Source: Dromaius novaehollandiae
Lineage: Eukaryota; Chordata; Aves; Casuariiformes; Dromaiidae
Length of the DNA: 64,000 bases
Assembly (NCBI RefSeq): GCF_036370855.1
Contig: NC_088111.1
Coordinates: 20,247,501 to 20,311,500, forward strand
Direction of reading: 5' to 3'
In this document: positions 24,750-31,813 of the stretch, piece after piece
How positions within the stretch are numbered: position 1 is the stretch's first letter
How the letters are laid out: the number at the start of each line of letters is the position of its first letter
Position numbers and translations under genes: made by a program
Notes under the pieces: generated by a model
Told to the model about the DNA's origin: nothing
The model's database searches: none
What the model saw: the letters and a program-made list of their open reading frames with translations, nothing else

Positions 24750-27700
24750 CTAAAAAAAATTAAAGCAAAACTTTTCTTGGGAAGTTGTGAATCTGAATGA
24801 GTCTGTGTTAGATGTCCTGGGTGATGCTGAAGGGGATCCGGCTGAACCTTCGCTTTTCCTGCAAGCTCCAGAGCGCTTTCGCAAGACCTGGCAGTTGTTC
24901 TTGTAGATGTTTTCCTTCACTTCCACAACCCTGGCAGATTTTGCAGCTTACAGAGGGGAGAAGAAAGCAAGAAGAAATGTTTAGTCACTTTATATTCCAC
25001 TCTGCAGAGCTATATGGAGGGTAAGAGTGAAGGAGGTTCTGCTTTCCTCTTCAATTCCCCCTACATGCAGTCTCCTACCTGCTTGCATGAGCTTGAGCTG
25101 TTTGCACCGCTCCTCCTCCATCTTCTTCCTGTAGTCTCCGAACATAGTTCTCATGATTTGACGCTTCTTCACTAACGGAGCCTTGTCACTGCGCAGTGTC
25201 TTGATTGCACGGACAGCCTCCTCCACTGAAGCAGTGGGAAACACAAACAACCCACAGTTTAGGACTCCACACTGGCTCTTCCCCTGCATCACTGCTCCTG
25301 TCTGCCAGCCCTTCCCACTCAGTCTCTTGCAACCCTTCCCTGCTCTCTTGAATGTTACCTTGTTTAGGAGTGGGCTTTTGCGTCTTCAGGCCAAGTTCCA
25401 GCTGTTCCACACACCAGTCCACTTCTTTCCACAGCTGGTCATCTGACTGCTATACAAGATGAACACAGTGAGCACAAGGAAATAAATCATCCTAACATGA
25501 TAGCAGCAGCAGCCACGCAAAAGAAACCTACACAAAAGAAACCCACACAAAGTCAGGACTAACTCAGAATTTCAGGTTCTGGTGGTCACTTTATAGACTT
25601 CATGAGATCTTGCCTATAGTGTTTTTCATTGGATAAATTTGAAGTGCTAAACAAATACTCAGTTGTGACTCACTGTCTCTATTTGATGGACTTAATATCT
25701 GGCTGCTATTCAGAAGACACAGTTCTCTGGAAAGCCCTTCAGGACTTCAAGATATTAAAGAAGCTGTCAAGTCAACTTATAGATGGGAGAAATAAGCATT
25801 AATAATAATAATAAAAAAACAAACTAACCTGCCCAAAATTATAGAGCAAGCAATGCACAAAATCAGAAGGAGAATCTTGGTGTCTGAGATCCCATGTGGA
25901 GGGAGGTCTGCACCTCAACTTTGCTGTTTGCATAATGTGAGTAATTTATCCTACCTGATAGCAAGTCATGGGTACAGTGCCTGATTCAGCACACACAGAT
26001 ACCCAGCTTGGCCCTGAAGACAGTTACCTGCCTTAAATTTTTTTTTTCTAAGGTCAGTGTGGCACCTGGCTTTCCAAAGGTTAGCTACCACAGGTCTCAA
26101 CACCAAGAACTCTTCATGTTTCCGCACAAGTCTCAGGCAGACAACAAAAAAGCAGTAACTTCCTTTCTGCTAGTTTGGTTCGTCAACTGACTAGCAGAGG
26201 AAAAAAAAAAGCTGCTGTAAGAAATAAGCAACAACCCTTGTTTTTCAGCTTGCATTTTGTGCCAGTATACTAATTGTTCAACTATGCATAGACATCAACT
26301 TTCTCTTCTATTGAAGGATTTATAATTTATGGGATCCTATCAGTATTCGAATACCTGAGAGGTCTCTTCTTCATGGGATACATCTTTATTCTGACATCCA
26401 CTGGCTTCCGCCTTTGCCTTCCTGCTTATCTCACTTTCTTCTATCTCCTTTTTACTGCTAGATGCTTTTTGTTTCTTCTTCTTTTTCTTCTTCTGGGCTG
26501 CTCCATCTGCTGCTGCTTTCTCTGTCACTGTCTCATCTCCAGGAGCACTCTCTGGTATAGGGGTCTTTAACACGAAATGGCCTCTGTCTTCTCCGGGTGC
26601 ACTATTTGCAGTTTGAGTCAGCTCAGGCTTCTGCAAGGTTGAGCTCTGTAGCATACCTGGTGATTCAGTAGGCAGTGAATTATCCAGCACTTCATGGTCT
26701 GCTGTACTCTCTAAGGGTTGGTTCACTAGAACTGATGGAACCAGAGGATGATCTTCACCTGGGATGGTAAAATTGAAAGCAAACTTGGGTTCTTGTCCAG
26801 AAGCAGCAAAACTCCAGGCTTCACTCATATTCTTTTGTTCTGGGGCTCTTACATTAGTTTGTTTCTGCTCAGCACCACTGGCACTAGGAGCTGCTCCCAA
26901 AGTTGCACCAGTTGCTGCTGAGTCCATCTCAAAAGATGTGAAGTCCAGTTGGAAGCTGTCGTCAGACAACATGCTCCACTTTGGTTCTGCCTCAGAGGTT
27001 TGGTCAGAGGGTTTCCTGTACCCCACACTACCTGAAGGCTGCCCACTGCCTGGCTGCACTTCTGCTTCACCAGGTTTCAGAGCTAGAAGAGATAAAGAAT
27101 GTTTCTATTAATACACCAATTTCCTACTATGGGGATGCCACTGGTACTGCAGCTCCCTCTATAAGGCACGGCTGCAGAGAGGCAATCCACTCAAAGCAAG
27201 ATTAAAAAAAACTTCAGAAAGGAACCAAGTATCACCATCCCCTGAAGGGACAGTTAAAGCTCACCTGCCTTCTCCATGCTCTTCTGCTCCTCAGCCATTT
27301 TGAGTCGATAATCCCCAAACACATGGTTCATCACTTGCTGCTTCTTCACCAAGGGGGTCTCATGGGAGTGCAGGACCTTGAGAATGTGCTGCGTTTCTTC
27401 TACTGCATTCAAGAAAAAGACCAAAAGAGAGAGGAAACAGGTCATGATGGGCCTTACAGACTATACTGCAGGATGCGGATGACAGGGTCTCCTCTGAACA
27501 TGTTCCAGCTGTGTTCATACTACACCTGACTAGTCCATGACTGACATTCAGTTGAAAGGAAACTCCAAATGTGAGGGCTCTTCAGCTGCACTAACTGTAC
27601 TACCAATGGAGCAGAAGCTACAGAGTGCTTAGCACCCCTTCTCCCCAAATAAACAAGAAATCCAAGAGCCTCTTTCTTTGTCTCTTCTCTGGAAAACTGG

Positions 27701-30700: not shown

Positions 30701-31813
30701 GAAAAGTCACAGGAAAGGCAGATAAGGTTCAGATAGTTCTTAAAGTTCAGTGTTTTATGTAATTTTGAATTTACAACAAAGAGAAAACAGATTGGTGAGG
30801 AGAAATACAAAAAGCTTCTAGGTCTACTAAATCAACACTGAGGCTGAAATTTAGCTGCAGACTATAAAGGAGGCAACATACCTTGTTTTGGGGCTGGGTT
30901 GAGGCAAAGGAGATTTGTCTCCAGCTGCAAAATACACCACTCCACCTCATCTTGGAATGTGCCCTGGGGATCCTTAGACACGGGGGGAAGGCACAATGTT
31001 TAAAAGTGCAAACAGCAGACGTGCAAAACTGATCCCAAATTCAAGTTTTCTGAAGTTCTCTGCTCTGCACTATGTGGGAAATCAGAGTAGCGGGTCGTAA
31101 AACCCTTTTGTGGCCTGACACTAGAGACATGCAGCATAACCACTTATACCACAAACCGGTGCAGAACAGAGTGACACAGGTCCTGCAAAATTTACAATTT
31201 GGAGCACACCAAATGAAGCCTCTTTATTATAAATACTAGAGACAGTAAACTTTTAGCAGGCCAACCACCCCGGCAAATCGAGACCATCCCTAGATGATTT
31301 CCCTTCTTCTTAACTCTTTCCTTGTTTAAAGGCCACAAATGGTAGATTCCTTGTTTTTGCTGTAGCTAATGGCCTAACACATCTCCGCAGCAGGAAATCT
31401 TCCCTCCAGCACAGCTGTGACAACACTCAGAATGCTTCCTTTACGCAGTAATCCCTATCTTTAAGTCCTTAAGATTATCTTTGTGGCATTTTCACCCTGC
31501 ATACCTTGCGATAAGCAGCTGGGGAGCAGGGCTTAGAAGTCTGCCTTTGAGTAAGACAGCCATTAAAATGCACTAGCAAATGAAAAAAGAAAACTTGGAA
31601 AGAAAAAATCCTGAAATGAAAAAAAGAAAATCAGAATAAGGAGATGACCACGGATGGAAAAAACTCCCAGGCAGACACCAGTGCTAGGAAAGTCCTTTTT
31701 TAAAAAACGCCCCACAGAGCCACTTCTTCGCGGCGCAAAAGGGGCGGCTTAAAGCCGCAGCGAGCAGCGGAAAAGGGACCAGCCAAGCCGGGGGAGGCTC
31801 CTACCTTCGCCAT
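24750..31813 (-). CDS. C8orf33: C8orf33 homolog (UPF0488), with duplicated core
   Basis: Coding exons: 31813-31805, 30972-30882, 27402-27265, 27082-26355, 25446-25359, 25225-25079, 24946-24750. They total 1398 nt (465 aa plus stop) with every phase matching. Identity rests on [19 protein letters not shown] (residues 333-351), nearly identical to human C8orf33 as I recall it, then FGDYR (380-384) and the C-terminal FCFNFF (460-465), matching human FRFNFF. The human protein is about 229 aa. The extra length is a second, N-terminal copy of the same unit: EWCILQLE...NPAPKQ (14-33), FGDYR (62-66) and KFAFNF (179-184), in exons of similar size and identical phase. A lysine-rich tract at about 277-285 precedes the second unit, as in human. 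Molecular function is unknown to me. The start is uncertain: the frame stays open upstream to 32275 in GC-rich DNA. Confidence 0.88.
28505..30105 (-). mobile_element. CR1 LINE with internal deletion, in intron 2 of C8orf33 homolog
   Basis: Minus-strand CR1. From 30105 it encodes the ORF2 endonuclease region: [24 protein letters not shown] and [14 protein letters not shown] are recognisable within a frame open at 29983-29411. The linker and the start of the reverse transcriptase follow (about 29000-28870, [20 protein letters not shown]). Sequence then jumps directly to the non-coding 3' part (28860-28505), ending in the usual ATTCTGTGA-like tail. Most of the reverse transcriptase is missing, the endonuclease GDFN motif reads GHFN, and a stop lies upstream, so the copy is dead. 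It lies in the sense orientation of the host gene's intron 27403-30881. Confidence 0.9.

What the first reader, a model, noticed from the sequence alone, without database searches (positions are those of the whole stretch)
24750..31813. C8orf33 homolog carries a tandem duplication of its whole core module
Two units, each made of a WCxxQLE...P(A/T)PKQ exon ending in phase 1, a VEE...FGDYR exon ending in phase 1, and a following exon that begins A-x-K and holds an F-x-FNF motif (KFAFNF at residues 179-184, FCFNFF at 460-465). Exon sizes pair as 91/88 and 138/147 nt. The human protein, about 229 aa as I recall, has only one unit. So the ancestral gene was either duplicated in this lineage or reduced in mammals. 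The first unit has lost much of the QLELGLK identity, while the FGDYR and F-x-FNF motifs are kept in both, which points to them as the functional contacts.
Basis: partly seen in the sequence, partly recalled or inferred. Interest (0 to 1): 0.72.

Follow-up and report, generated by a model that had tools for sequence, protein, structure and literature searches.

The report
Bird C8orf33 carries two repeat units
This bird's version of the little-studied nuclear protein C8orf33 is built from two copies of the module that the human protein appears to have once; the doubling is very old, and the human gene, now on another chromosome, may be the shortened form.

Summary
The minus-strand gene has seven exons with GT-AG introns, is open for 465 residues, and matches Pfam DUF4615 twice, end to end; recalled human C8orf33 matches once. 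The unit cores share 34 of 62 residues, and none of 2000 shuffles reaches the score, even with FGDYR masked. The internal intron keeps position and phase. The exon 4/7 pair is weaker: beyond F-x-FNF no similarity is shown.

Synonymous sites are saturated, so the duplication is old. The only DUF4615 hits in the 1.47-Gb genome are exons 3, 5 and 6 of this gene. Its neighbours are AMDHD2 and ATP6V0C, human 16p13.3 genes (recalled), not 8q24.3; a fish c8orf33 has similar neighbours. So the human gene has probably moved, and I lean towards a two-unit ancestor shortened in mammals. A bird/reptile-side duplication is not excluded.

Unit 2 is basic and human-like; unit 1 is acidic and diverged. The mechanism, an adaptor with one conserved and one repurposed module, is inferred. 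No transcript and no second vertebrate genome could be examined.

The parts
31805..31813 (-). exon 1 coding part (MAK), inside the CpG-rich 5' end of the gene
   Evidence: exon, GT donor; CpG observed/expected 0.57-0.89 in the three half-kb windows of 31501-33000; at most 0.36 in all 15 windows from 24001 to 31500
30882..30972 (-). exon 2, 91 nt: unit 1, WC-QLE-P-PKQ part, ends in phase 1
   Evidence: (0 of 2000 shuffles against exon 5)
27265..27402 (-). exon 3, 138 nt: unit 1, VEE...FGDYR part, ends in phase 1
   Evidence: helix-loop-long helix predicted, pLDDT 92
26355..27082 (-). exon 4, 728 nt: end of unit 1 with KFAFNF (residues 179-184), then a long linker with a lysine-rich stretch
   Evidence: highest codon-usage score of the frames ranked in the window, 58.1 against 39.8 for the next
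25359..25446 (-). exon 5, 88 nt: unit 2, WC-QLELGLK-PTPKQ part, ends in phase 1
25079..25225 (-). exon 6, 147 nt: unit 2, VEE...FGDYR part, ends in phase 1
   Evidence: helix-loop-long helix predicted, pLDDT 93
24750..24946 (-). exon 7, 197 nt with stop: end of unit 2, C-terminal FCFNFF
   Evidence: weak DUF4615 match of its own, 24.0 bits, below the cut-off of 27, profile 82-137
24089..24094 (-). first poly(A)-signal-like hexamer (ATTAAA) after the stop; AATAAA follows at 23618-23613

Best explanation
One gene, the bird orthologue of C8orf33, encodes a 465-residue protein with two DUF4615 units joined by a linker of roughly 140 residues, probably disordered judging by its composition. The units come from an old in-phase tandem duplication of a three-exon genomic block (phase 0 in; internal junctions in phase 1). 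Each unit core is a WC..QLE segment, then a short helix, a P-L turn and a long helix that carries FGDYR; an F-x-FNF tail closes each unit. Unit 2 is basic, diverges least and matches the human protein, so it most likely keeps the ancestral job. For human C8orf33 that job is described as nucleolar and chromatin-associated, limiting KAT8 on chromatin at DNA breaks. Unit 1 has lost the basic charge (net -3 against +4) but kept the most conserved residues, so I infer a second, repurposed docking module that makes the protein a two-handed adaptor. Shown: the architecture, homology of the cores, age beyond synonymous saturation, no other copy found in the genome. Inferred: one spliced mRNA, the division of labour (about 0.3), and which state is ancestral.
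For: Exons, phases and open frame. Two DUF4615 matches over a cut-off of 27 bits (164.4 for unit 2 alone, 93.7 for unit 1 alone). Core identity 34 of 62, shuffles 0 of 2000. Same position and phase of the internal intron, 19 residues after the W in both units. Synonymous sites saturated: pS 0.81, pN 0.31, bootstrap 2.5% bound of dS 1.34, 17 identical codons against 16.5 expected at random. No other DUF4615 hit at E 0.001 and no other unit-1 relative at E 10 among the scored candidates (8 of 8 and 15 of 15) of the 1.468-Gb genome. Exon 4 has the best coding score of the ranked frames. CpG-rich 5' end only (24001-33500 examined), and no AATAAA/ATTAAA between exon 4's donor and exon 5. Same predicted helix-loop-helix for exon 3 and exon 6: (each alignment held both sequences, so not independent). 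Composition and charge. Human function: PMC12624059, abstract, sections 10 and 13 and found passages read.
Against: No RNA evidence joins exon 4 to exon 5. Exon 1 gives only three residues and its start codon has C at -3 (seen). Exon 4 holds an AATAAA 30 nt before its donor, and an in-frame stop follows 12 nt into the intron, so a unit-1-only product is possible. Exon 4/7 homology is not significant by itself. The functional split rests on charge and conservation only; in the KAT8 paper the words 'truncat', 'motif' and 'conserved' do not occur in the main text, so I found no domain mapping there.
Confidence: 0.72

Rival explanations
1. The duplication happened on the bird/reptile side after the split from mammals; the single-unit human gene is the ancestral form, and unit 1 simply evolved fast.
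For: U1-U2 identity (34 of 62) is higher than U1-human (27 of 62; human recalled), and 8 sites are shared by U1 and U2 against human. At one of those 8 (V2L) the profile clearly prefers the human residue. At none of 15 sites where U2 and human agree does the profile prefer the unit-1 residue (14 lower, 1 equal), so there is no positive sign that U2 and human share derived residues against U1. C8orf33 evolves fast in birds: one-ratio dN/dS 0.59 and 0.71, free-ratio 1.12 and 1.95 in two vultures (PMC4618389, table passage).
Against: Synonymous divergence is beyond saturation; at a recalled 2e-9 per site per year the 2.5% bound is 335 million years, at 4e-9 it is 168. At 6 of the 8 U1=U2 sites the profile prefers the bird residue and 1 is a near tie, so most look like human-side changes. 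The profile may itself be built largely from unit-2-like sequences, which weakens both polarity counts.
Confidence: 0.35
2. Exons 1-4 and 5-7 belong to separate transcripts or proteins (two neighbouring genes, or a unit-1 isoform ending in exon 4 or intron 4).
For: AATAAA at 26390-26385 inside exon 4; reading through the exon 4 donor meets TGA at 26342-26340. There is no junction evidence between exon 4 and exon 5.
Against: Exon 4 runs open to a CAG|GT donor in phase 0, and exon 5 opens in phase 0 behind an AG. No CpG-rich stretch lies before exon 5. Exon 5 has no in-frame ATG, so a unit-2-only product would need a start in exon 4 or in another first exon, which I did not search for. Cleavage 10-30 nt after that AATAAA would fall before the stop codon.
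Confidence: 0.12
3. The likeness is convergence or chance around a short FGDYR motif.
For: The exon 4/7 pair alone is not significant.
Against: 0 of 2000 shuffles with FGDYR masked, BLASTP E 1e-22 between units, two profile matches, matching intron position and phase.
Confidence: 0.01

Closest known systems
Human C8orf33 / UPF0488 (DUF4615, PF15393)
   Same: Same domain from end to end; unit 2 core 41 of 62 identical to the recalled human core; C-terminal F-x-FNFF.
   Different: The recalled 229-residue human protein has one DUF4615 match (109-228). The human gene lies on chromosome 8 (its name says so); this one lies with AMDHD2 and ATP6V0C, human 16p13.3 genes as I recall.
c8orf33 of the flatfish Solea senegalensis
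   Same: Lies with wdr90, rhot2, rhbdl1, wdr24 and anks3 (PMC7915175 and PMC6579814, found passages only), human 16p13.3 genes as I recall, so the same kind of neighbourhood as here.
   Different: Its unit number is not stated in the passages read and could not be examined.
Tandem domain duplication by exon block within a gene (general class, from general knowledge)
   Same: Block bounded by equal phases, internal intron kept.

Membership tests
DUF4615 (PF15393) | profile score over the curated cut-off of 27 bits, unit 2 | tested here: met
   164.4 bits, profile 1-137 of 137
DUF4615 (PF15393) | profile score over the cut-off, unit 1 | tested here: met
   93.7 bits, profile 2-137 of 137; 92.2 bits without the F-x-FNF end
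C8orf33 orthologue | the best or only DUF4615 gene of the genome | tested here: met
   3 hits in the genome, exons 3, 5, 6 of this gene; a unit-1 query finds only exons 2, 3, 4 and 6. That DUF4615 is the C8orf33 domain rests on the recalled human sequence
C8orf33 orthologue | same chromosomal neighbours as human 8q24.3 | tested here: not met
   neighbours identified in the window are AMDHD2 and ATP6V0C. Human positions are recalled; no 8q24.3 neighbour gene was searched for. A fish c8orf33 also has 16p13.3-type neighbours, so this speaks for a move on the mammalian side, not against orthology
C8orf33 orthologue | single DUF4615 unit, about 229 aa | tested here: not met
   two units, 465 aa; hence 'variant'
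C8orf33 function (nucleolar, limits KAT8 at breaks) | localisation and effect on H4K16ac | not testable with these tools
   I saw it described for the human protein only (PMC12624059)

The most novel reading that the evidence does not exclude
The two-unit gene next to AMDHD2 is the ancestral form of bony vertebrates or at least of amniotes. Mammalian C8orf33 is a cut-down copy that moved to another chromosome and lost unit 1, so human work on the protein sees only half of an original two-handed adaptor with one basic and one acidic module.
Probability: 0.42. Interest if true: 0.55.

Novelty: new variant of a known kind. Interest (0 to 1): 0.4.

Why it matters
C8orf33 is a barely characterised protein recently tied to the choice between DNA-break repair pathways (PMC12624059). 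A two-unit form gives a natural experiment: one unit kept, one drifted, both still folding alike by prediction. Comparing them points to 26 of 62 core positions that stayed the same, and a two-unit ancestor would mean that the human protein is a reduced version whose lost half may have had its own partner. I found no paper on the two-unit form in the searches. Of the 62 papers with C8orf33 40 were listed; five papers were opened, mostly for passages.

Tried and rejected
Relatives elsewhere: exon 6 against viral contigs (40 stretches, none confirmed) and genome contigs (145 stretches, none confirmed), as expected for viral and prokaryote collections. No vertebrate collection was on hand. PDB: no sequence relative at E 10 of the whole protein or of the KFAFNF region.

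Rooting by profile: swapping 24 single sites of unit 2 to the human or unit-1 residue and reading the Pfam score did not decide the order of duplication and split. The base scored 126.5 bits, all 8 U1=U2 sites set to human 123.5, all 15 U2=human sites set to unit 1 105.4, the whole core as human 119.3 and as unit 1 92.3; single-site results are told under the rivals.

Human N-terminus (recalled) against exon 4: 19 of 2000 shuffles for the whole, aligning to exon 4's start; 183 of 2000 for the lysine-rich part. I drop the idea that the lysine-rich linker is shown to be homologous to the human N-terminus.

Fold search of the exon 6 model: 26 matches at E 10, none at E 0.001 or below, best E 1.2; a two-helix hairpin says little. 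I also considered that F-x-FNF(TI) resembles the N-terminus of METTL18, from memory; a PDB search with recalled METTL18 matched my recall for residues 63-144 and 162-179 only, because the solved chain lacks the N-terminus. It stays an untested lead.

Synteny beyond two genes: recalled KCTD5 and PDPK1 gave no match in the window at E 0.01. A genome search for RHOT2's family did not complete. Pfam scans of 20 other open frames of the window named no gene over a curated cut-off.

Full report
What is there. Exon 4 (728 nt) has the highest codon-usage score of the frames ranked in the 64-kb window, 58.1 against 39.8 for the next (codon table recalled). Within 24001-33500 the only CpG-rich stretch lies at the 5' end, 31501-33000, and no AATAAA or ATTAAA lies between exon 4's donor and exon 5. 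That fits one transcription unit, but no RNA was available.

Two units. Pfam names the family: DUF4615 (PF15393), with unit 2 at residues 326-464 over the whole profile, and unit 1, residues 1-200 given alone, over profile 2-137. Core against core: 34 of 62 identical, score 179 against a shuffle mean of 24.8, 0 of 2000; with FGDYR masked 144 against 24.2, 0 of 2000; exon 2/5 and exon 3/6 singly also 0 of 2000; BLASTP E 1e-22. The intron between them lies 19 residues after the W in both units, in phase 1, and both blocks open in phase 0. This is a duplicated exon block.

The weak part. Exon 4 against exon 7 alone is reached by 173 of 2000 shuffles, a 134-residue piece of exon 4 including KFAFNF has no Pfam match at E 10, and without the F-x-FNF end unit 1 still scores 92.2 bits. 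F-x-FNF occurs in 41 of 200000 shuffles of exon 4, so the motif is probably a true remnant, but the stretch between is not shown to be homologous.

Age. Over the 62 core codons pS is 0.81 and pN 0.31; 1488 of 2000 bootstraps are saturated; the 2.5% bound of dS is 1.34; 17 codons are identical where random synonymous choice gives 16.5. With recalled rates of 1.5e-9 to 4e-9 per site per year that bound means 447 to 168 million years. So the duplication is older than living birds (about 100 million years, recalled), and may be older than the bird-mammal split (about 320, recalled).

Number in the genome. The window is C14:20247501-20311500 of a 1.468-Gb assembly. DUF4615 rings three times at E 0.001, at exons 3, 5 and 6 of this gene. 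A unit-1 query at E 10 finds exons 2, 3, 4 and 6 of this gene and nothing else. No second gene was found that could be the 'real' single-unit C8orf33.

Neighbours. AMDHD2 occupies 42912 to 35157 (11 matching pieces), and ATP6V0C lies at 55764 to 54059 (two pieces, residues 25-155 of the human protein), both on the same strand as this gene. AMDHD2 was confirmed through PDB 7nut (two exons), ATP6V0C through V-ATPase structures (last exon), and both with recalled human sequences. In human these two are neighbours at 16p13.3 (recalled). KCTD5 and PDPK1, also expected there, were not found in the window. In the sole, c8orf33 shares a BAC with nlrc3, wdr90, rhot2, rhbdl1, wdr24 and anks3, along with genes of other origins; the paper describes a group of ten genes of that BAC, c8orf33 among them, as translocated against the reference species (passages of PMC7915175 and PMC6579814). 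Those genes are mostly 16p13.3 in human (recalled). The simplest reading is that the gene sat in the 16p13.3-type block before birds and fishes parted, and moved on the way to human. A move is a natural occasion for losing the 5' half, but nothing here shows that the two events coincided.

Order of events. With the recalled human core, identities are U1-U2 34, U1-human 27, U2-human 41 of 62; corrected three-branch lengths are U1 0.51, U2 0.09, human 0.32. Unit 1 is the long branch. Reading the profile at 8 sites where U1=U2 differ from human, it prefers the bird residue at 6, is near equal at 1 and prefers human at 1; at 15 sites where U2=human differ from U1 it never prefers U1 (14 lower, 1 equal). 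One further site (U1=human) was neutral. This does not root the tree.

How it probably works. Exons 3 and 6 are both predicted as a short helix, a turn and a long helix carrying FGDYR (pLDDT 92 and 93; each prediction saw both sequences). Net charge of the core is -3 in unit 1, +4 in unit 2 and +6 in recalled human. The human protein is described as mainly nucleolar, going to double-strand breaks, and limiting KAT8 on chromatin (PMC12624059; abstract, discussion and section 10 read). I infer that unit 2 does this work here and that unit 1, having lost its basic charge, docks something else. This division is my inference, at about 0.3.

Conclusion. Real, old, and a variant of a known family. 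The important question, whether mammals lost a unit, is now sharper but needs other vertebrates.

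Noticed in passing
window 42912-35157 (-): AMDHD2 (N-acetylglucosamine-6-phosphate deacetylase), 11 pieces covering nearly the whole protein, same strand, just upstream of the C8orf33 gene.
   Followed up: yes
window 55764-54059 (-): ATP6V0C (V-ATPase 16 kDa proteolipid), two pieces found with recalled human letters; the last exon confirmed against PDB chains.
   Followed up: yes
window about 28500-30200 (limits by eye): CR1-like non-LTR retroelement piece in intron 2 of the gene (name recalled from its sequence; endonuclease domain PF14529 at 8e-6 on the minus strand, 26.2 bits, below the curated cut-off of 27.4).
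   Followed up: no
window 32300-32438: Perfect 11-bp tandem repeat GGGGGGAGAGA, 12.6 copies, about 0.5 kb upstream of the gene's start.
   Followed up: no
window 20730-20362 (-): Long open exon-like frame that looks like a one-helix membrane protein with a charged tail (contains MEEVWVVYLCLILLIVVLLL), downstream of the gene; not identified.
   Followed up: partly
window 26786-26748 (-), residues 179-191: [13 protein letters not shown] in unit 1 resembles the N-terminus of the methyltransferase METTL18 as I recall it; could be a shared docking motif or coincidence (could not verify that part).
   Followed up: partly
PMC4618389, table passage: C8orf33 is listed among genes with lineage dN/dS above 1 in both an Old World and a New World vulture; which unit or the linker carries the changes is not said in the passage read.
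   Followed up: no
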